NCBI GenBank assembly: GCA_016235815.1
Contig: JACRIM010000009.1
Span: 1-32,733 of the forward strand
DNA: 32,733 nt
DNA from: Planctomycetota bacterium
GTDB lineage: Bacteria > Planctomycetota > Phycisphaerae > UBA1845 > UTPLA1
Reading direction: 5' to 3'
Shown: in pieces, positions 1 to 32,733 of the stretch
Layout of the letters: the number at the start of each line of letters is the position of its first letter
How positions within the stretch are numbered: position 1 is the first letter of the stretch
Program-made: the position numbers and the translations under genes
Notes under the pieces: model-generated
What the model saw: only the letters and a program-made list of their open reading frames with translations
What the model was told of the DNA's origin: nothing
Database searches by the model: none

Positions 1-23
1 AGGTCTGCGCCGATGAAGTGCAT
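1..23 (-). CDS. Putative IS110-family transposase, first 7-8 codons only
   Basis: The minus strand reads ATG at 23-21 and encodes MHFIGADL before the window ends. AGAAGGAGAA lies just upstream as the ribosome-binding site. IS110-type transposases start with a beta strand of the form hhGhD, where the Asp is the first acid of the DEDD RuvC-like site. IS621, for example, reads HYIGID. The visible residues fit this. They would also fit other RNase H-fold proteins such as sugar kinases, so the call leans on the repeated, conserved leader at both window ends. Confidence 0.5.
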
Positions 24-14163: not shown

Positions 14164-17100
14164 CTAATAAAAAATCTTCCATATTACATATCCGACTCCA
14201 TTGGCCACCGCAGTATGCGCCTGGCCAACACTGTCAATTACACCAATTGTGTACGTATGTTGCAGATTTGCCCCAGTGCCCTTAGAGAGTCCAGGTAACC
14301 CGACGCCACCTTGTGCGCCAGCGTACCCAGATCCGCCCACGCCGCCCACATATATTGGACCCGCACCAATGCCGCCACACCAGCCTTTTCCGGTGAGTTG
14401 AGAAACACAATCTGCGTTTGTATAGGTGCCGACCGCCGACGCTCCCGCACCCGCGCCTCCCCCAACTCCTGCACCTCCTGAAACCAACACGTCACCCGAC
14501 CAGCCTCTATACCAGGGCGAATTAGAATCGTGCCCAATGTGAAGGCCAATACCTGCTGATCCTGCAAATCCAGGTCCAATTACGTCGAGATCTATTCCGA
14601 TGCCGATTGTTGTAAGGCCAGAGGGGTCTACCGAGCGTGTCGGTAGGCTATGGCAGTAACCGTATGTATTCAACCCACCCCGAATCCCAATCGGATCGCG
14701 CTGTACAAACCGCCCGCTCGACGGATCGTAGTAGCGATGGCCCACATGCTGCCACCCGAGTTCCGCCAGTGGATCACCGGTTCCCGCCTCCTGATACCCC
14801 CACGCCCCCGCGTAGCCATAGCGCGTATCCGTCGAGCCGTTCTCATACACCGGCTCGCCGAAGGCCGTAAAGACCGCGCGGCGGCTGACGGAACTGGTGT
14901 CATCCGTCATCGCCTCGGTCGTGCCGATGAGGTTCCCGTTGGCGTAGTTCGGATCGGTCGGCTCGGCCGGCGTGCCGGTCCAGGTGAATTGACCAAGGCC
15001 CGGCTCGTGGCCGATGGTGTCGTTCTTGGTAATCGTCTGGTTCGGCGGTGATCCCGTGATCGCCAGCGTGTAATCCCCGTGAATGCCATCGCCCGAGTAA
15101 TCGCTCCACGTCCCTTCAGCCGGGACGTTCCAACATGGCCCATCGGCCAGCGAAGGATCGTAAGGGAACAAAAAGTGCGCGGCGTTCGACGAACCGTTGG
15201 CCAGTTTGGGTCGCGGGTCGCGCCGCTGCGTGCGATAGCGGCCTCGGGCGCTGTCGTAGCGGTATTCCATGGCGGACAACCCGACCTCGTTGATCACGGC
15301 ACCGCTCGCATTGAGTTGCCACTTGGCCGACCGGGCGATCCAGATCAGCCCGGCGGAATTGTAGAGCAGATCCACGCCATGGTACCACTGGCCATTCTCG
15401 TTGGCGTCGCCGGTGATCTTCCAGCCGGTACGCACCATGCGACCCGCGAGGTCGTAAAGATAGACCTGTTCCTTCGACGAGGTAACTGGGTCGCCGAAGT
15501 AGGTGACCTCCTTCACGAGCCGATTCCCCTGACTGAAGTATTCCTCCGGGTCTGATACGTCGTAGGTATAGACTGTTAGAACATCGTCGAGCAGGTTCTG
15601 CTTGGTGAGCCGGTTGCCGGCCTTGTCGTAGGTGTAGGCGAAGCCATAAGGATGCAGGCCGGTCCGCTGCTCCTGAACGAGTCGATTGCGCCGGTCATAG
15701 GTGAAGTCAATCACATTCGGCCCGCCCTCGCTGGTCGTCTCTGTGATGTAGTCGACGAGGCCGTAGGGAGTCCAGGCGTATTGAAGCTGGTGCAGGAGCG
15801 CGCCGCCCGCCCACTCATGGCGAATCTTAGTCAGGCGATTGGCGAGATCGTATTCGTACCGTGTCTGGGTACCATTGCCATAAGCGACGAGCGTAACACG
15901 GTCGCCGTCATCGTATTGGGCCTGCACGGTGAAAATGTCCGTCGTGCCTTTTCGGCGAGCGTAGGATACCGGGCGACCAGCGGCGTCCAGTTGCACCTCC
16001 GAAAGTGTCCCGTCGGGGCCGGTTCGGCTGAAGTAGCCGCTGGTCCAGTCGTGGCCATACTGAATCGTCCGCACGAACGGCGTGCCCACACTGCTTGTCG
16101 CAGTGGCCTCAATGGAGGTGATGCTCGCCGAGGTAAGTCGGCCCAGATTGTCGTAGTTCATTTCGTGAGTGCGCGTGGTCGGCGCGCCGGTGATGCCGTC
16201 CGGGGCGCACTTGGGGTAGGCGGTGGTTTCACCGTTGGGGTTGTAGGAGATGTTGCCGTTCGTGCAGCCGCTGTTGACCGGGCAAAAATAAGCTGGAAGC
16301 GAAGGGAAGTGGAACTGGCAGTCGCCGCCGCCCGCCGCTGGGCCTGGATTGGGGGGCGAGGGAAAGCAGTCTGGGAGGTACCTACCTGCGCAAAACTCCG
16401 ACGCCACCAAGTCTGCGCAATCTACTCGGATCGGCCGGCCGAGATTATCAAGAGGGGTTTCTCCCGAGTTGATTCCGTTGCCCATGAACTTTGGGGTTCC
16501 GTCCGGAGCGTAATCGGTGGTGATGACAACCGGTGGGGCCGCGACATCGAGCAGGATCTCCGTCGGCGCTCCCTCGCGTTCTTGGTTGAGCCTTCCATAG
16601 GGATCGTATGTGTATTCCGTCACAACCGGATTGATCGAGAACGGAGGAATGACCTTCTTGAGTTTGCCGTACGCTGTGGGATTGTTGCCGGCGTCGAGGG
16701 CGTGATAACTCAGGAGCGTTTCGACGACGGGATCACCAGGATTGGCGCCGGGTTCGATGATCTTGGTGGGACTCGTCGGGTGAAGTGGATCATCGTATTC
16801 GATCTCGATGATTTGCGTCGTGCTGGAAGTGCCGGGCAACTCTCCCGGCGGTGTAATCATGACGAGGTTATGCAGGGCGTCATAATCATACATCCAAATA
16901 CTGCTCTCCGGGTCGAGAATGACTTCGAGGTCGCCGTTCGTCAGATTGTGCTGATAGAGCCACGCTTGACCGAGTGCATTTGTATAGACAGACACCTCGT
17001 GCATCAACGGGTAGCCCGGCGGATCACCATATTCGACCGATTGGGTGTGATTGAGCGGGTCGATCAACTCGACCAGATTGCCACTCGTTGTATCAAACGT

Positions 17101-18441
17101 GAACTTCCACGGGTTCCCGCGCCGATCGACGTATTGCGTTTGCTGCTCGTAGAAAGACGAAAACTCAAAGTAATAGATGGTCTGTTGTTGTTGACCGAAC
17201 GGGTCCGGGTCGAAGATTTGATTCAAGCGACCTTGATAGTAGTTCATCCAATAGGTTCGAGGGGTGATGGGGTCTTGATTGGCATCGACGGCATGTTGTT
17301 CGGTAATACTGTCGATGTCCCAGGTGCGCTGGGAAGCGTTCTGTGGGTTTACGCGATAGGTAAAGCTGATTCGATATTTGGGAGAGATGGGCGTTGTCAC
17401 GTTCGGCAATTCCACGGCAAGCAGCGGACCGGTTCCCGAATTTGCGGGATGCGCAGGATCAGCCGAAACTTCGTAAAGGAGGTTCCACTGCAACGTGTTT
17501 CCGCCGAGAATTCGATAGATCGTGACCATTCGGCCGTTCGTTGAGTAATAGAATTCCAGATATCTTGACGTGCCGGTGGCGTCAAAGACCTTGACGAGTT
17601 TCTGACTTGTAATGCCGCCGACGGTAAACGGCACATACTCGCATTTGACCTTATTCGTCGGGGAGCCAGACGCATCGCGCGAGGCATCGGCAATCCATTC
17701 CAAACGGCGTCGTGGTGAGGATGTGCCGTCGATTCGGTTGAAGTGGGCCTTCCACTGGCCTTTGCTTGTGAGTGTGTAGTCCACTCCATTGGTATCGCGG
17801 GTCAACATTTCCCAAACTCCGAACGGCGACTTGTAGCTGCCGTTGGACTGATACTCGAAGAGGTCTTTCGTCCCATCGTCGCGAGTAAGCGTCACGTTTT
17901 GAGTCGATGTGTCCACTTCGAGTTCGGCTGAGTAACTGTGCCGCCATTCCGGCGCTGTGGGCTGAGTTTCGAGTTCGGTGAAGAATGACGCCAGGTCTTC
18001 GATGGTGATGTCGCCATCCTCGTTGAAGTCGGCGAGCTTCAAATCCGGATCGGAATGCTCCTCCTCCAGCATCAGGTCGATGAAGGGGTCGATGTCGTTT
18101 TCGTCGATTACTTCGTCGCCATTGATGTCGCCCTGGAGAAAGCCGGGAGCACCCCAAGCGGAGTTCTGGTTGTGGTACAGGTTGAATTGAATACTCGGCC
18201 CGCGACCCGACCAGCCGGTAATCGGGATCGTCGTAAGCACCCGGCCGGTGCGAAGGTTTACCTGTCCATAAAGGCCTACCGGCAGCGATGCCTCCCACCG
18301 GCGGGCGGCGCCTTGGGGCGCGCCGAAGGGAGTAAAGGCGTGAACTGGTACAGCGCCAACGAGGATGGCGATCAAAGCAGCGGAAATGGAGGTTAAGTAA
18401 CTATTTCGGACACGGGGGGGGGCAAATGCAAGGGAAGACAC
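14164..18441 (-). CDS. RHS/YD-repeat exported protein with N-terminal dockerin-like module and distinct C-terminal tip
   Basis: The product has 1425 residues. The GTG start at 18441 follows GAAAGGAG. A signal peptide (about 1-36, ending VPVHAFT) directs export. A pair of EF-hand motifs (GDINGDEVIDEND and ADFNEDGDITIED) lies at about 100-155. The rest is a long series of YD/RHS repeats (for example YDYDALHNLVMIT, YDLAGRMVRTGW, RYEYDLANRLTKIRHEW) that form a beta-shell. The core box GHRYYDPSSGRFVQRDPIG...YGYCHS...SVDPSG ends near residue 1276. Beyond it, about 149 residues form a Gly/Ala-rich tip ending in YVIWKIFY, which resembles no toxin I know. RHS cores often release such tips as toxins, but this may instead be a surface protein. 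Confidence 0.9.
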   Translation of the reverse strand: MSSLAFAPPRVRNSYLTSISAALIAILVGAVPVHAFTPFGAPQGAARRWEASLPVGLYGQVNLRTGRVLTTIPITGWSGRGPSIQFNLYHNQNSAWGAPGFLQGDINGDEVIDENDIDPFIDLMLEEEHSDPDLKLADFNEDGDITIEDLASFFTELETQPTAPEWRHSYSAELEVDTSTQNVTLTRDDGTKDLFEYQSNGSYKSPFGVWEMLTRDTNGVDYTLTSKGQWKAHFNRIDGTSSPRRRLEWIADASRDASGSPTNKVKCEYVPFTVGGITSQKLVKVFDATGTSRYLEFYYSTNGRMVTIYRILGGNTLQWNLLYEVSADPAHPANSGTGPLLAVELPNVTTPISPKYRISFTYRVNPQNASQRTWDIDSITEQHAVDANQDPITPRTYWMNYYQGRLNQIFDPDPFGQQQQTIYYFEFSSFYEQQTQYVDRRGNPWKFTFDTTSGNLVELIDPLNHTQSVEYGDPPGYPLMHEVSVYTNALGQAWLYQHNLTNGDLEVILDPESSIWMYDYDALHNLVMITPPGELPGTSSTTQIIEIEYDDPLHPTSPTKIIEPGANPGDPVVETLLSYHALDAGNNPTAYGKLKKVIPPFSINPVVTEYTYDPYGRLNQEREGAPTEILLDVAAPPVVITTDYAPDGTPKFMGNGINSGETPLDNLGRPIRVDCADLVASEFCAGRYLPDCFPSPPNPGPAAGGGDCQFHFPSLPAYFCPVNSGCTNGNISYNPNGETTAYPKCAPDGITGAPTTRTHEMNYDNLGRLTSASITSIEATATSSVGTPFVRTIQYGHDWTSGYFSRTGPDGTLSEVQLDAAGRPVSYARRKGTTDIFTVQAQYDDGDRVTLVAYGNGTQTRYEYDLANRLTKIRHEWAGGALLHQLQYAWTPYGLVDYITETTSEGGPNVIDFTYDRRNRLVQEQRTGLHPYGFAYTYDKAGNRLTKQNLLDDVLTVYTYDVSDPEEYFSQGNRLVKEVTYFGDPVTSSKEQVYLYDLAGRMVRTGWKITGDANENGQWYHGVDLLYNSAGLIWIARSAKWQLNASGAVINEVGLSAMEYRYDSARGRYRTQRRDPRPKLANGSSNAAHFLFPYDPSLADGPCWNVPAEGTWSDYSGDGIHGDYTLAITGSPPNQTITKNDTIGHEPGLGQFTWTGTPAEPTDPNYANGNLIGTTEAMTDDTSSVSRRAVFTAFGEPVYENGSTDTRYGYAGAWGYQEAGTGDPLAELGWQHVGHRYYDPSSGRFVQRDPIGIRGGLNTYGYCHSLPTRSVDPSGLTTIGIGIDLDVIGPGFAGSAGIGLHIGHDSNSPWYRGWSGDVLVSGGAGVGGGAGAGASAVGTYTNADCVSQLTGKGWCGGIGAGPIYVGGVGGSGYAGAQGGVGLPGLSKGTGANLQHTYTIGVIDSVGQAHTAVANGVGYVIWKIFY

Positions 18442-18469: not shown

Positions 18470-18574
18470 CACAGGTTGGAAACCTATGCCACAAAGACTC
18501 ACAGGTTGAAAATCCACCCAGGCGGATCTTCGACCTGTGTTACCACTCACCGGTTGAAAACCGGTGCCACAACG
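18470..18574. repeat. Three degenerate copies of the CACCGGTTGGAAACCGGTG hairpin family
   Basis: Copies start at about 18470 (CACAGGTTGGAAACCTATG), 18499 (CACAGGTTGAAAATCC, with a longer centre before GACCTGTG) and 18549 (CACCGGTTGAAAACCGGTG). Each is followed by CCACA or a variant. They sit upstream of the RHS gene, and better-kept tandem copies lie at 1231-1338. The arms vary together in part, CACAGG...CCTATG versus CACCGG...CCGGTG. Confidence 0.75.
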
Positions 18575-18847: not shown

Positions 18848-21800
18848 TTACCCAAACGCCTCAGTCTCATCGTGAATGGCGTGCTGGTCGCCGCGGAAGT
18901 GGATGACCACGCGGCGGATGACGTAGTAGAACACCGGGGTGAGGATGAGGCCGATCAGGGTGACGCCGAGCATTCCTGAAAAGACAGCGGTGCCGAGGGT
19001 GCGGCGCATTTCGGCGCCGGCGCCGGTGGCGAAGGTCAGCGGCACGACGCCGAGGATGAATGCGAACGAGGTCATCAGGATCGGCCGAAGGCGCAGGCGG
19101 CAGGATTCAACCGCCGCTTCCAGCGGGCCGCGCTTGTCTTCCTCTTCGCGCTGCTTGGCGAATTCCACGATGAGCACGGCGTTCTTGCAGGCCAGGCCGG
19201 CCAGGACCACGAAGCCGATCTGCGTGAGAATGTTGTTGTCCATGCCGCGGCCCCACACGCCGAGCAGCGAGCAGAGAATGCCCATCGGCACGATGAGGAT
19301 GATGGCCAGCGGCAGGGCCCAGCTTTCATACTCGGCCGAGTGCGTCAGAAAAACGAACAGCACGCAGAGCGGGAAGATGAGGAAGATGGTGTTGCCCGAG
19401 AGGTTCTCCAGATAGGACAACTCGGTCCACTCATAGCCCATGCCGCGCGGCAACTCGGCCGACGCGAGCGCCTCCATCGATGCGACGGAGTCATTGGAAC
19501 TGAAACCGGGAAGCGTCGCGCCATTCACAGCGGCCGCGGGGTACATGTTGTAGCGCTGCACGACGATAGGTCCTCCGACGTCGCGCACCTTGATGAGGGT
19601 GCTGAGCGGGATCATCTCGCCGGAGGCATTTCGCACTTTGAGTTGGCCGATGTTGTCGGGGTGGAGGCGAAACTTCGATTCGGCCTGCACGTTGACCTGC
19701 CAGGTGCGGCCGAAGCGGTTGAAGTCGTTGACGTAATATCCGCCGAGAAAGACCTGCATGGTGTTGAAGACGTCGCTGATGTTGACGCCGAGCATTTTGC
19801 ACTTTGTGCGGTCGACGTCGGCGTAGAGCTGCGGCGTGTCGGAGCGCATGCCGCTGAAGACGCCGACGAGGCCGGGTGTTGCATTGGCCTTGGTCACGAA
19901 GTTTTCGGTCTGGTTCTGTAACGTTTCCAGGCCGAGGTCGGAGCGATCCTGAATCATGATCTTGAAGCCGCCGGCGTTGCCAAGCCCATCGACGGCCGGC
20001 GCGCCGAAGACGGCGACGATGGCCTCCTGCACCTCATGAAAACAGCGTTCGCGAAGGGTGGCGATGATCGCCTCGCCGGCTTTGGCCGGTTCGCGGCGAT
20101 GATCGAAATCGTCGAAGACGGCGAACATGGAGCCGAGGTTGGAGCCGTTGACGCCGAGGAGGAACGACTGGCCGGCGACGCCGACGCTGTGTTTCACGCC
20201 GGGGATTTCGCGGGCGATTTTTTCAATGCGTGCGAGCACGGCCTGAGTGCGCTCCAGCGAGGCGGAGTCGGGAAGCTGGACGTTGGCGAGCAGATACCCC
20301 TTGTCCTGTGAAGGGATGAAGCCGGTCGGAACGTTCTTGAAACTCCAGTGCGTCAGGACGAGAAGCCCTGCATAGACCAGCAGGCACACCGCGCTCAGGC
20401 GAAGGCACCGTCGAACGATGCGTGCATAGCGTTCGGTCGTTATGGCAAAGACTGTGTTAAAGAGCCGGAAGAACCATCCGAGAATGGCGTTCATCAATCG
20501 TGTGAGCCAGTCGGGCTTTGCACCACGGGCCGGCAGGAACAGGGCGGTCAGCGCGGGGCTGAGGGTGAGCGAATTGAATGCGGAGATCAGCGTCGAGGTG
20601 GCAATCGTCAGGGCAAATTGGCGATAGAACTGGCCGGTGATGCCGGACACGAAGGCCGTCGGGATGAATACGGCGCTGAGGCCGAAGGCAATGGCGATGA
20701 CGGCGACCGTAACCTCGTCCATGGATTTGTACGATGCTTCGCGCGGCGACAAGCCGCGATGGATCCAACGCTCCACGTTTTCCACGACGACGATGGCATC
20801 GTCGACCACGATACCGATGGCCAGGACCATGCCGAAGAGCGACAGGTTGTTCAGGCTGAACCCGAGCAACTTCATGACGGCAAACGTGCCGATCAGCGAC
20901 ACGGGCACGGCGATGAGCGGAATCAACGCCGACCGCCAGTTCTGCAGGAACACCAACACCACAATCGCCACGAGTATGACGGCGTCGATCAGGGCCTTGA
21001 AGACTTCGCGGATCGACTCGCGCACGAACGGCGTCGTGTCATAGACAATGGAATAATCCAGGCCCGCGGGGAAGTATTTTTTCAACTCCTCCATTCGTGC
21101 GCGGATGTGGTCGGCTGTTTCAAGGGCGTTGGAACCGGGAAGCTGAAACATGGCCAGCCCGACGGTGGGCATTCCATCCAGCGTGCACGCGATGTCCTGA
21201 TTCCTCGCCCCCATTTCGACGCGGGCCACGTCGCGCAGACGCGTCACTTCGCCCTTGTCGCCTGATTTGAGGATGATCTGCGCGAATTGCTCGGGATCGA
21301 TCAGGCGACCGAGCGTATTGATGATGTACTGAAAATCCTGGCCCGGCGGCGCGGGGGGCTGGCCGATCTGGCCGGCGGCGACCTGGATGTTTTGCTCCCG
21401 AAGGGCGGCGACGACATCGAGCGTGGTCATGCTGTTGGCGGCGAGCTTTTCCGGATCGAGCCAGACGCGCATGCTGTAATCTTTGCGGCCGAGGAAGAAG
21501 ACATCGCCGACGCCCTGCACGCGGGCCAATTCATCGCGCACCTGAATCGCGGCATAGTTGCTGAGATACAGCTGGTCGTATCGGCCGTCGGGCGAGAAGA
21601 GATTCACCACGAGCAGGATGCTGGGCGATCGTTTTTGGGTGAGGACGCCGGTCTGTCGAACGGCCTCCGGCAAAAGCGGCTGCGCGATGGCGACGCGGTT
21701 CTGCACGCGAACCTGGGCCATGTCGAGATCGGTGCCGACCTTGAACGTGATCGTCAGCGTGTAGGTTCCGTCGTTGGTCGACTGCGACGACATGTACATC

Positions 21801-22027
21801 ATGTCTTCGACGCCGTTGACCTGTTCCTCAATCGGCGAGGCAATCGTCTCGGCGACAACCTTGGCATTGGCGCCGGGATACATGCAACTGACCTGCACCG
21901 TCGGAGGCGCGATCTCGGGATATTGCGCAACCGGCAGCGTGAACGCGGCGATCGCGCCGACCAGCGTAATCACGATGGAAAGCACCGATGCGAAGATGGG
22001 GCGATCGATAAAAAAGCGGGAAAGCAC
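18848..22027 (-). CDS. RND efflux pump inner-membrane transporter, HAE1/AcrB type
   Basis: This is a proton-driven tripartite pump subunit of 1059 residues, the full family length. The N-terminus FFIDRPIFASVLSIVI is the classic first membrane helix. The two large periplasmic loops and twelve membrane segments are in the usual order. The proton-relay pair DD lies in GIVVDDAIVVVENVER (about residue 406), and the matching Lys in GLACKNAVLIVEFAKQ (about 950). Start is a GTG at 22027, four bases after the adaptor stop, so the two are translated together. It probably exports hydrophobic drugs, detergents or metabolites; which ones is unknown. No TolC-type outer-membrane gene is present in the window, so an unlinked channel would be needed. 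Confidence 0.96.
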   Translation of the reverse strand: MLSRFFIDRPIFASVLSIVITLVGAIAAFTLPVAQYPEIAPPTVQVSCMYPGANAKVVAETIASPIEEQVNGVEDMMYMSSQSTNDGTYTLTITFKVGTDLDMAQVRVQNRVAIAQPLLPEAVRQTGVLTQKRSPSILLVVNLFSPDGRYDQLYLSNYAAIQVRDELARVQGVGDVFFLGRKDYSMRVWLDPEKLAANSMTTLDVVAALREQNIQVAAGQIGQPPAPPGQDFQYIINTLGRLIDPEQFAQIILKSGDKGEVTRLRDVARVEMGARNQDIACTLDGMPTVGLAMFQLPGSNALETADHIRARMEELKKYFPAGLDYSIVYDTTPFVRESIREVFKALIDAVILVAIVVLVFLQNWRSALIPLIAVPVSLIGTFAVMKLLGFSLNNLSLFGMVLAIGIVVDDAIVVVENVERWIHRGLSPREASYKSMDEVTVAVIAIAFGLSAVFIPTAFVSGITGQFYRQFALTIATSTLISAFNSLTLSPALTALFLPARGAKPDWLTRLMNAILGWFFRLFNTVFAITTERYARIVRRCLRLSAVCLLVYAGLLVLTHWSFKNVPTGFIPSQDKGYLLANVQLPDSASLERTQAVLARIEKIAREIPGVKHSVGVAGQSFLLGVNGSNLGSMFAVFDDFDHRREPAKAGEAIIATLRERCFHEVQEAIVAVFGAPAVDGLGNAGGFKIMIQDRSDLGLETLQNQTENFVTKANATPGLVGVFSGMRSDTPQLYADVDRTKCKMLGVNISDVFNTMQVFLGGYYVNDFNRFGRTWQVNVQAESKFRLHPDNIGQLKVRNASGEMIPLSTLIKVRDVGGPIVVQRYNMYPAAAVNGATLPGFSSNDSVASMEALASAELPRGMGYEWTELSYLENLSGNTIFLIFPLCVLFVFLTHSAEYESWALPLAIILIVPMGILCSLLGVWGRGMDNNILTQIGFVVLAGLACKNAVLIVEFAKQREEEDKRGPLEAAVESCRLRLRPILMTSFAFILGVVPLTFATGAGAEMRRTLGTAVFSGMLGVTLIGLILTPVFYYVIRRVVIHFRGDQHAIHDETEAFG

Positions 22028-22030
22028 CGA

Positions 22031-23227
22031 TCATCCTCGGGAGTGGGTCGACGTGGTTTGCGGGGAGGCCGGCTGAGTGGCGGCAACTTCGTTCGCCGCG
22101 TCGATGGGCTTGACGCTCATGCCCGGCCGAACGCGCTGCAGGCCGTTGACGATGATCTTGTCGGTGGGGCCGATCCCTTCGGTGATCACGCGCAGCCCGT
22201 CGCGCAAGACGCCGATCTTGACCTTGCGATACTCGGCAACATTCTGGTCGTTCACGACCATCAAATAACGCTGCCCCTGGTCGCTGCCGATGGCACGTTC
22301 GGTCACCAGAATGGACTTGTATGGTTCGCCGATGGGAATCTGAATGCGGGCGAAAAGCCCCGGAAGCAGGAGTCCGTCGGGATTGGGGAAACGGGCGCGA
22401 ACCTGAACCGTGCCCGTGCTGCGGTTGAGTTGCGTGTCGCAATAGTCAATGTAACCGTGGTGCGGGTAGCCTTCCTCGTTCATGAGGCCCATCGAGGCGG
22501 GCCGCTTTTCAATCGCGGCCACGTGTTCAAAGGTGCCGTTTTCGGCGCGAATCCGGTCTCGGACCGTCAGGGCATCCTGTTCGCTTACATCGAAATAGAC
22601 GTGAACGTCGTCATCGTTCGTGATCATCGCCAGCGGAGTTTCGTCGGCCATGACGAGATTGCCGGCATCGACCAGGTTTCGGCTGATCCGACCGGAGATC
22701 GGCGCTTTGACCTGTGCATAGTCCATTTGCAGTTTGGCCTGCTCGACCGCGGCGCGGGCGGCCGCAAGATCGGCACGGGCCGCATCCAGGCGGCTCGTTG
22801 TCGCCACGCGCTCATCTTCGGCTGCCGATCCGGTCGCCATCAGATCGGCAATGCGCTTGGCATCGAACTCCGCCTTGTCGATCGTGGCCTGCCTCGCCAT
22901 CACGTCGGCCTCGGCTTTGTCGAGTTGCACCTTGAAAGGGCGCAGATCGATGACGAAGAGCAATTGCCCTTTCTGAATCCGGGTCTGCGGCATGAAGTGA
23001 TACGACTCGACATAGCCCGTGACGCGCGGGCGGACGGTCACGGTCTCCAGAGCCCGGGTATATCCCGAGTACTCAATGCGATCGCGAATCTCCTTTACAT
23101 ACGGAGTGCTGACCGTGACTTCGGGCGCGGACATGGCGGGCATCGCCGGCTTGCGGCCCTCGCATCCCGCGAAAACCGGGGGCAGTGCAACGAAAACGGC
23201 CCAAAGATAATGAGGCTGATACTTCAT
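22031..23227 (-). CDS. RND efflux periplasmic adaptor (membrane fusion protein), lipoprotein
   Basis: The product has 398 residues. The N-terminus ends with lipobox VFAGC (Cys22), anchoring it in the inner membrane. VRPRVTGYVESYHF and VKAPISGRISRNLVDAGNLV are the two halves of the lipoyl domain. Between them, about 105-175, lies an alpha-hairpin coiled coil rich in Ala, Asp and Arg. Beta-barrel and membrane-proximal domains follow, including TGTVQVRARFPNPDGLLLPGLFARI and GLQRVRPGMSVKPI. The Thr/Ser-rich end is flexible. It bridges the transporter downstream to an outer-membrane channel. ATG at 23227 is the start; no strong ribosome-binding site is seen. The DUF1844 gene lies 61 bp upstream on the same strand. 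Confidence 0.95.
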   Translation of the reverse strand: MKYQPHYLWAVFVALPPVFAGCEGRKPAMPAMSAPEVTVSTPYVKEIRDRIEYSGYTRALETVTVRPRVTGYVESYHFMPQTRIQKGQLLFVIDLRPFKVQLDKAEADVMARQATIDKAEFDAKRIADLMATGSAAEDERVATTSRLDAARADLAAARAAVEQAKLQMDYAQVKAPISGRISRNLVDAGNLVMADETPLAMITNDDDVHVYFDVSEQDALTVRDRIRAENGTFEHVAAIEKRPASMGLMNEEGYPHHGYIDYCDTQLNRSTGTVQVRARFPNPDGLLLPGLFARIQIPIGEPYKSILVTERAIGSDQGQRYLMVVNDQNVAEYRKVKIGVLRDGLRVITEGIGPTDKIIVNGLQRVRPGMSVKPIDAANEVAATQPASPQTTSTHSRG

Positions 23228-32100: not shown

Positions 32101-32225
32101 AAAAAAACTACCCCCACAAAAAAGTGCAAAAGCCCGCAAAAGGCCGCAAAAAAGTCTTGAGACCTGAGACCTGAGACCTGAGACCTGAGTCCTGAGTCCT
32201 GAGTCTTGAGACCTGAGGCTTGAGG
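32101..32225. repeat. Inverted copy of the heptamer-word array, (GACCTGA)n / (GTCCTGA)n with CCGCAAAA words
   Basis: 32101-32153 has words GTGCAAAA, GCCCGCAAAA and GGCCGCAAAA. 32154-32225 has about ten 7-bp units such as GACCTGA and GTCCTGA. Its reverse complement is colinear with 231-325: the CTCAGGA/TCTCAGG heptamers come first, then TTTGCGGCC, TTTGCGGGC and TTTGCAC, then TTTTG(C/T)GGGGG. It begins about 20 bp after the shikimate kinase stop. Confidence 0.85.
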
Positions 32226-32455
32226 CAATAAGGGAACGGGGAACGGGGAACAGAAGGAAGGCACAGAGGCACTGAGGCACGAAGGCACTGAGGGGTGGAA
32301 AATTCGAAACGTCGAAAAGTCGAAAAGTCGAAATGAGGTGGCAAGGGATTCGAGGGGGCAAGGGGCCGAGGGGAAGTGGGACCCGCAAATGGCCGCAAAT
32401 CGCGGTTTTTGGCCGCAAGAAGCCGCAACTTGTTGCGGGTTGTGGCGGGGGTGGA
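32226..32455. repeat. Run of four further short-word tandem arrays
   Basis: After the heptamers come GGGGAAC units (about 32230-32252), 8-bp GGCACTGA/GGCACAGA/GGCACGAA units (about 32258-32292), 8-bp TCGAAAAG units (about 32304-32335), and words built on GGCCGCAA or its complement (about 32385-32450). Each set has a different sequence but a similar 7-10 bp period. No gene is supported in 32079-32709. Between 32456 and about 32559 I see no repeat or site. Confidence 0.75.
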
Positions 32456-32559: not shown

Positions 32560-32733
32560 GGTTGCCGGATTCTTTCTTTCTCCAACGACACCTATCAATC
32601 TTGAAACTATGAAGCGGAGTACGCGTCGACGCACACGGTTCCTTGCGATAGTGTTAAACCATTGCGGTGTTATTTCATTACGCAACCAATAACACAGAAG
32701 GAGAAAACCATGCACTTCATCGGCGCAGACATC
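32560..32733 (+). mobile_element. Right boundary: 5' end of a second IS110-like element, facing outward
   Basis: 32592-32709 matches the reverse complement of 24-141 at about 90% by hand alignment, including an identical 28-base stretch at 32592-32619. An AGAAGGAGAA ribosome-binding site and an ATG at 32710 follow. Weaker similarity runs back to about 32560. The conserved leader of at least 118 nt is longer than a ribosome-binding site needs, which fits a structured RNA such as an IS110 bridge RNA. The name of the element family rests on the few transposase residues visible. Confidence 0.55.
32710..32733 (+). CDS. Putative IS110-family transposase, first eight codons only
   Basis: ATG at 32710 encodes MHFIGADI before the window ends. 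It is the same start as the minus-strand copy at 23 (MHFIGADL), with the same ribosome-binding site, GAAGGAGAA. The hFIGAD motif fits the first catalytic Asp of the IS110 DEDD domain. The rest of the gene is outside the window. Confidence 0.5.

What the first reader, a model, noticed from the sequence alone, without database searches (positions are those of the whole stretch)
32560..32733. Conserved non-coding leader before an IS110-like start: candidate bridge RNA
Two outward genes starting MHFIGAD share about 118 nt of non-coding leader at roughly 90% identity, beyond any need for a promoter and ribosome-binding site. IS110-family elements encode a bridge RNA in the DNA upstream of the transposase; it pairs with target and donor and guides recombination. 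Differences between the copies cluster in two short patches (near GCGATAGTG and near CCAATAACA), which could lie in guide loops.
Basis: partly seen in the sequence, partly recalled or inferred. Interest (0 to 1): 0.68.

Follow-up and report, generated by a model that had tools for sequence, protein, structure and literature searches.

The report
IS110-family element leader with hairpin
The repeat at both ends of this contig is the left end of a jumping gene from a known RNA-guided family; its leader folds into a conserved hairpin that probably hides the transposase's ribosome-binding site, while the guide RNA most likely lies at the element's other end, outside the window.

Summary
Both contig ends carry the left end of one multicopy element: TG core, subterminal repeat CTATGAAGCG, a leader (99 of 111 nt identical, core and ATG included), then MHFIGAD. 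Homologues with this leader encode an IS110-family transposase.

A stem GUGR-[U]-AAAC/GUUUYCAC sits on an outer stem containing the Shine-Dalgarno AAGGAG; pairs covary across 11 leaders. Best reading: a translation-repressing 5'-UTR hairpin, as reported for ISPpu9.

A bridge RNA in the leader is not supported: leaders do not, as a rule, match their own targets better than foreign ones. The 3' non-coding region of relatives holds a larger covarying RNA (46 pairs, 15 with changes on both sides), next to a long right end and subterminal repeats, the layout published for IS1111-type elements. The guide RNA is probably there; its guides could not be shown either.

The element inserts at TG in a dispersed 25-bp repeat (29 uninterrupted sites). 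The window's own transposase is missing from the assembly. New member of a known kind.

The parts
32589..32601 (+). Left half of the insertion target (host DNA), CACCTATCAATCT
   Evidence: coordinates; the same half precedes the other five left ends from CTATCAATCT on and is continued in 29 uninterrupted sites.
32602..32603 (+). Core dinucleotide TG, start of the element
   Evidence: Left junctions ...ATCT-TG-AAACTATG, right junctions CATAGA-TG-CTCGG.
32607..32616 (+). Left subterminal inverted repeat CTATGAAGCG
   Evidence: Matches the reverse complement of the right end CGCTTCATAG of the same genome, 10 bp.
32602..32709 (+). Non-coding leader (left end) of the element
   Evidence: Homologous leaders of 101-117 nt (core and start codon included) in seven other genomes or records of the aligned set, plus G316.
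32639..32645 (+). Outer stem H1, 5' arm TTCCTTG
   Evidence: Pairs with AAGGA of the Shine-Dalgarno; inner closing pair G-C 6, A-U 1, C-G 1, unpaired 3 (this copy unpaired) of 11 leaders.
32651..32656 (+).
   Evidence: Perfect partner of 32690-32695; covariation at H2 pair 4 and 6.
32690..32695 (+).
   Evidence: As above.
32662..32666 (+). Apical hairpin arm TTGCG, partner CGCAA at 32681-32685
   Evidence: In the predicted fold of this copy and of G000a; only in this genome's copies, no covariation support.
32698..32703 (+). Shine-Dalgarno AAGGAG, 3' arm of H1
   Evidence: Six nt before the ATG; less open than with shuffled upstream sequence, 8 of 200 shuffles as closed.
32710..32733 (+). Start of the transposase gene, MHFIGADI, cut by the contig end
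21..131 (-). Second copy: core TG (130-131), leader and ATG (21-23), outward
   Evidence: Subterminal repeat 117-126, H1 5' arm 88-94, H2 arms 75-82 and 38-44, Shine-Dalgarno 30-35.
1..23 (-). Start of the second transposase gene, cut by the contig end

Best explanation
The contig ends are left ends of a multicopy IS110-family insertion sequence in a bacterium of the same order as a Phycisphaerae MAG. Shown: insertion at TG within a dispersed genomic repeat; subterminal inverted repeats; a short left end and, in relatives, a long structured right end. Supported by covariation: the leader forms a two-part hairpin whose outer stem takes in the Shine-Dalgarno. Inferred: when the ends meet in a circular form they make a promoter (TTGACA/TTGACT in the right end, 17 nt, then GAAACT/GAAGCT), the transcript begins with the leader, and its hairpin keeps transposase translation low; the RNA that guides target choice is read from the 3' non-coding region, not from the leader.
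For: Leader: covariation 0.200 against 0.081 in shuffles, 0 of 500; double-change score 98 against 12, 0 of 2000, in 11 leaders with three pair types at H2-4 and at H1-7. A more distant leader (L058) folds with its Shine-Dalgarno paired too, z -2.92. Right end: 46 pairs, 15 with changes on both sides, covariation 0.383 against 0.221 (0 of 500) and at most 0.100 when slid; 46 G-U against 5 A-C cells, so read on the transposase strand; no frame open in all six rows. Layout: right ends 285-475 nt in three elements, left ends 101-117 nt, subterminal repeats 7-11 bp. Precedents: PMC11187229, PMC11208160 (guide RNA in the right end of IS1111-type), PMC8450116 (ISPpu9 5'-UTR covering the ribosome-binding site; weakening it raised translation).
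Against: Most single leader folds are no more stable than shuffles (z near 0 for the window copy; 2 of 10 clearly lower). Shine-Dalgarno closure is individually weak (only 1 of 12 under 5%; 2 of 12 on the wrong side). In one search, pairs with both-side changes were reached by 23 of 500 shuffles and further pair types by 157 of 500. Own-genome transposase and most of its right end unseen. Guides not identified in the right end. The A2 structure was predicted from the same alignment that was counted.
Confidence: 0.7

Rival explanations
1. The leader itself is the bridge/seeker RNA, with guides in the variable apical loop of the hairpin.
For: Structured, conserved, variable apical loop; CGGTGTTT in the own leader equals part of the own right target half; G316 and G365a leaders rank first for their own targets, G316 with 8 of 200 shuffles. 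Canonical IS110-type elements have it upstream (PMC11187229, PMC11208160).
Against: Own-target ranks of 12 are 5, 7, 12, 11, 3, 1, 10, 1, 3. The CGGTGTTT match is as good or better in leaders of elements with other targets (PNKX, JAJDED, G365), and is absent from the G010 leader although the G010 right target half is alike. A larger covarying RNA is at the other end.
Confidence: 0.12
2. The hairpin is a site where the transposase or another factor binds its own mRNA, so that translation is regulated rather than simply kept low; or it guards against translation of transcripts that read in from outside.
For: Same structural evidence; conserved six- to seven-nucleotide internal loop side and bulged U look like protein contacts (inference).
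Against: No binding data; not separable from plain repression by sequence.
Confidence: 0.13
3. No RNA function: the leaders are alike only through recent copying and common descent, and the stem is chance.
For: Five of six copies in the genome are almost identical; most single folds are unremarkable.
Against: Compensated changes at three positions across genera.
Confidence: 0.05

Closest known systems
ISPpu9 of Pseudomonas putida (PMC8450116; abstract, outline and passages read)
   Same: Transposase mRNA with a 5'-UTR structure proposed to take in the ribosome-binding site; element sits in dispersed repeats at a dinucleotide; an RNA is encoded downstream too.
   Different: Its 5'-UTR is 244 nt and has an antisense RNA, Asr9; here the leader is about 108 nt and I did not look for an antisense RNA. 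Effect on translation is measured there, inferred here.
IS1111-type elements such as ISEc11 and IS4321 (PMC11187229, parts 1-3 of 9 read; PMC11208160, passages)
   Same: Subterminal inverted repeats, short left and long right non-coding end, structured RNA downstream of the gene, transposase of 337-344 aa in three relatives (330-350 published), GL-P----S motif in two of three.
   Different: Repeats 7-11 bp (published 11-13); extensions 5 and 3 including the shared TG (published 7 and 3); SA in place of SG/TG; the small tree puts the transposase on the other side of a 100/99 branch from IS4321, ISKpn2 and IS5708.
IS621 / IS110-type with bridge RNA in the left end (PMC11208160, passages; solved sequence matched)
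   Same: DEDD transposase (P0001 matches IS621 at E 3e-13), dinucleotide core, insertion in repeats.
   Different: Left end too short to hold the published 5' bridge RNA plus the gene's own leader in the same way; right end is the long one.

Membership tests
IS110 family (broad sense) | DEDD_Tnp_IS110 and Transposase_20 domains | tested here: met
   Met in the homologue P0001 (60.4 and 71.7 bits; NF033542 232.2 bits). Not testable in the window's own copy, whose gene is missing from the assembly.
IS110 family (broad sense) | Site-specific insertion at a short core without classical terminal repeats | tested here: met
   TG core at left and right junctions; 29 uninterrupted target sites, 0 for the reversed pattern.
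IS1111 group | Subterminal inverted repeats of 11-13 bp | tested here: inconclusive
   10, 11, 9, 11, 7, 7 bp in six elements.
IS1111 group | Terminal extensions of 7 (or 6) bp left and 3 bp right | tested here: not met
   5 left and 3 right, both counting the shared TG (its G000 right value of 2 came from a one-base cut, mended).
IS1111 group | Longer non-coding region downstream of the gene | tested here: met
   285-475 nt right ends in three elements, 101-117 nt left ends.
IS1111 group | Transposase in the IS1111 clade | tested here: inconclusive
   Tree of 11 proteins, one starred inner branch, separates the three relatives from IS4321, ISKpn2, IS5708; 25 of 28 loci lost to my filter and no IS621 row.
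Left-end bridge RNA (IS110-type) | Guide segments in the leader matching own target and donor | tested here: inconclusive
   Own target ranked first for 2 of 9 leader-target pairs, lower for 7. Donor match not tested.
Right-end guide RNA (IS1111-type) | Conserved structured RNA downstream of the gene | tested here: met
Right-end guide RNA (IS1111-type) | Guide segments matching both target strands | tested here: inconclusive
   Own target ranked first for 2 of 8 right ends; only G316 is rare in shuffles, 2 of 200.
Ribosome-binding-site-covering 5'-UTR (ISPpu9-like) | Conserved stem that includes the Shine-Dalgarno | tested here: met
   H1 with AAGGAG, covarying closing pair; thermodynamic closure only weak.
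Ribosome-binding-site-covering 5'-UTR (ISPpu9-like) | Opening the stem raises translation | not testable with these tools
   Needs a fusion experiment.

The most novel reading that the evidence does not exclude
The element carries two separate conserved RNAs, one at each end: a right-end guide RNA and a left-end hairpin with a fast-changing apical loop that also acts in trans, for instance by binding the transposase or touching target or donor DNA, so that guide use and transposase synthesis are coupled.
Probability: 0.1. Interest if true: 0.65.

Novelty: new member of a known kind. Interest (0 to 1): 0.36.

Why it matters
It warns against placing the bridge RNA of an IS110-family element by the rule 'upstream of the transposase': here the upstream structure is most likely translational control and the guide RNA candidate sits at the other end. 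If the hairpin does hold back translation, it extends the ISPpu9 observation to a distant clade with covariation support and offers a small, testable switch on an RNA-guided recombinase.

Tried and rejected
Guide search. In one search, rank of the own target among leaders, of 12: G000a 5, G000b 7, G010 12, G040 11, PNKX 3, G365a 1, G365b 10, G316 1, G401 3; shuffles at least as good, of 200: 16, 30, 188, 200, 34, 25, 187, 8, 88. Among right ends, of 8: G000 part 5, G010 part 8, G040 8, PNKX 6, G365 1, G316 1, G288 3, G401 4; shuffles 24, 189, 200, 152, 175, 2, 87, 58. The G010 and G365 targets were pieced from different copies; G288 and G401 have a right half only; G357 was used only. By eye I saw GTTCGGGC and CCTTGCTT in the G316 right-end RNA facing its target; the script preferred another left match and I do not rely on it.

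Own transposase: PF01548, PF02371 and P0001 gave 0 in G000. P0001 in genome contigs: 3 loci, one of them the same contig as G040. Right-end pattern in viral contigs: 0. Rfam on six loci at E up to 1: one hit, below its cut-off and outside the element. Right-end model in 397 genomes: 11 with a match; of the 8 matches over 70 bits, 7 were model sequences. A leader alignment for a second model (A4) put H1 out of register and no model was built from it.

Rows dropped: the tree kept 11 of 36 proteins attempted, because my filter lost 25 of 28 loci. L058 was left out of the pair count (11 of 12 leaders). G365a/b are near-copies and G000a/b come from one genome, so rows are not independent. One of 29 target sites (L033) was missed by my pattern. 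Two of the nine right ends (C40, C43) share their flank and may be one insertion. In one search the G000 right end was cut one base short; one search gives the mended distance.

Papers: PMC11187229 parts 1-3 of 9; PMC11208160 passages; PMC8450116 abstract, outline and passages; PMC11208158 and PMC1525189 in search listings only.

Full report
What is there. The window is one whole contig, G000:C48, and both its ends run into the same repeat. The repeat is the left end of an insertion sequence; six copies of it were found in this genome, all stopping at contig ends. I read both ends of all 60 contigs and clustered them. In a cluster of ten contig ends, nine share a right end, CGCTTCATAGATG, followed by the right half of one target; the tenth, C36_start, has neither. 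C40 and C43 share their flank, so nine may be eight. Left and right ends do not balance, so some copies are incomplete or their contigs missing.

Target. Uninterrupted sites CTATCAATCTTG-nTCGnTGTTTCAG occur 29 times with up to three mismatches, and the reversed control pattern 0 times. Left junctions read CTATCAATCT-TG-AAACTATG, right junctions CATAGA-TG-CTCGG or similar. TG is therefore the shared core. In 28 of the 29 sites the surroundings agree as ACaCCTATCAATCTTGcTCgGTGTTTCAg. I did not check whether the sites are intergenic. Insertion into dispersed repeats is known for the family (PMC11208160, passages).

Which family. The own transposase is not in the assembly: PF01548, PF02371 and P0001 give no match in G000. 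Leaders alike in sequence stand before IS110 transposases elsewhere: P0001 of G040, 340 aa, matches DEDD_Tnp_IS110, Transposase_20 and NF033542, and the G010 gene starts MHFIGCDLHKKTIT. P0001 also matches the solved ISCro4 and IS621 sequences at E 9e-15 and 3e-13. The G040 contig equals a Phycisphaerae MAG record and G040 is of the same order as the window's genome.

Leader structure. Alignment A1 has 10 leaders from eight genomes or records. RNAalifold predicted 10 pairs, one of which has changes on both sides. The eight-pair stem GUGR-[U]-AAAC/GUUUYCAC has 93.8% of cells paired and a covariation score of 0.200 against 0.081 in shuffles (0 of 500); pairs with changes on both sides, 2, were reached by 23 of 500 shuffles and further pair types, 4, by 157 of 500. 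One slid version reached 0.169. A hand-placed count of 11 leaders, with G316 and the outer stem, gave a double-change score of 98 against 12 (0 of 2000) and 92.7% of cells paired against 89.0%. Key pairs: H2-4 (G-C 8, A-U 2, U-A 1), H2-6 (A-U 10, G-C 1), H1-7 (G-C 6, A-U 1, C-G 1, unpaired 3). In the window copy G-C became U-A at 32654/32692 and 32691 lets the otherwise bulged U pair: with the bulge kept this copy pairs 5 of 8 in H2, in its own register GTGTTA/TAACAC it pairs 6 of 6.

What the leader does. The outer stem contains AAGGAG, six nucleotides before the ATG. The Shine-Dalgarno is less open than with shuffled upstream sequence in 10 of 12 leaders, individually weak: 8 of 200 shuffles for the window copy, 17 to 134 of 200 for the others. 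ISPpu9, an IS110-family element in dispersed palindromes, has a 5'-UTR structure proposed to cover the ribosome-binding site, and weakening it raised translation (PMC8450116). I take the same role as most likely here; it is inference until a fusion is tested.

Why not the bridge RNA. In one search the own-leader match CGGTGTTT to the own target is equalled or beaten by leaders of elements with other targets (PNKX, JAJDED, G365). G010 has a right target half like that of G000 in both its right-end copies (CTCAGCGTTCCG), yet its apical loop lacks that segment. In one search the own target ranks first for 2 of 9 leader-target pairs.

The right end. The 3' non-coding regions of six rows from five genomes or records (A2) share 46 predicted pairs, 15 with changes on both sides; covariation 0.383 against 0.221 shuffled (0 of 500) and at most 0.100 when slid. 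The structure was predicted from this same alignment, which favours it over the slid versions. G-U cells outnumber A-C cells 46 to 5 of 276, so it is read on the transposase strand, and no reading frame is open in all six rows. Right ends measure 285-475 nt in three elements, leaders 101-117 nt. Published work finds the guide RNA downstream of the gene in elements of this layout (PMC11187229, PMC11208160). The own genome's right end is known for its last 138 nt only, homologous to those of G010, G316, G288 and G365.

Filing. Subterminal repeats of 7-11 bp and extensions of 5 and 3 differ from the IS1111 definition, and an 11-protein tree sets the relatives apart from IS4321. I file it as IS110 family with IS1111-like layout, not as IS1111.

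Promoter. TTGACA or TTGACT stands 22 nt before the core in six elements, so that joining the ends puts GAAACT or GAAGCT 17 nt after it. In PNKX the right core reads CG. This agrees with the junction promoter described for the family; it was not tested.

Limits. Guides were not identified at either end. Leaders are few and related. Nothing here shows expression.

Noticed in passing
219-278 and 32160-32226: Inverted runs of a CTTGAGTCCTGAG-like short repeat near both contig ends; similar runs flank several other copies of the element.
   Followed up: no
1228-1335 and 18518-18571: Short direct repeats with ACCGGTTGGAAACTGGTGCCACA units, three in tandem and one far away.
   Followed up: no
G000, 29 places, e.g. 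L015 293-317 of C45: Dispersed repeat ACACCTATCAATCTTGCTCGGTGTTTCA, whose ACACC and GGTGT could pair around the insertion point; it is the element's target. What the repeat itself is stays unknown.
   Followed up: partly
L239 (G316:C338): Copy with both ends and the right-end RNA but an internal loss in the transposase gene, so non-autonomous.
   Followed up: partly
L058 1939-2043: A distant IS110 relative with the same TGAAACTATGAAGCG start and a different leader sequence that folds with its Shine-Dalgarno paired, z -2.92.
   Followed up: partly
L064 2012-2071: Sub-threshold Rfam hit to Acido-Lenti-1 RNA (28.1 bits, cut-off 37) upstream of the G040 element.
   Followed up: no
14164-18441: Reading frame of 1425 codons with an RHS repeat and a dockerin domain.
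   Followed up: no
18848-23227: AcrB/AcrD/AcrF-type pump next to an HlyD/CusB-like membrane-fusion protein.
   Followed up: no
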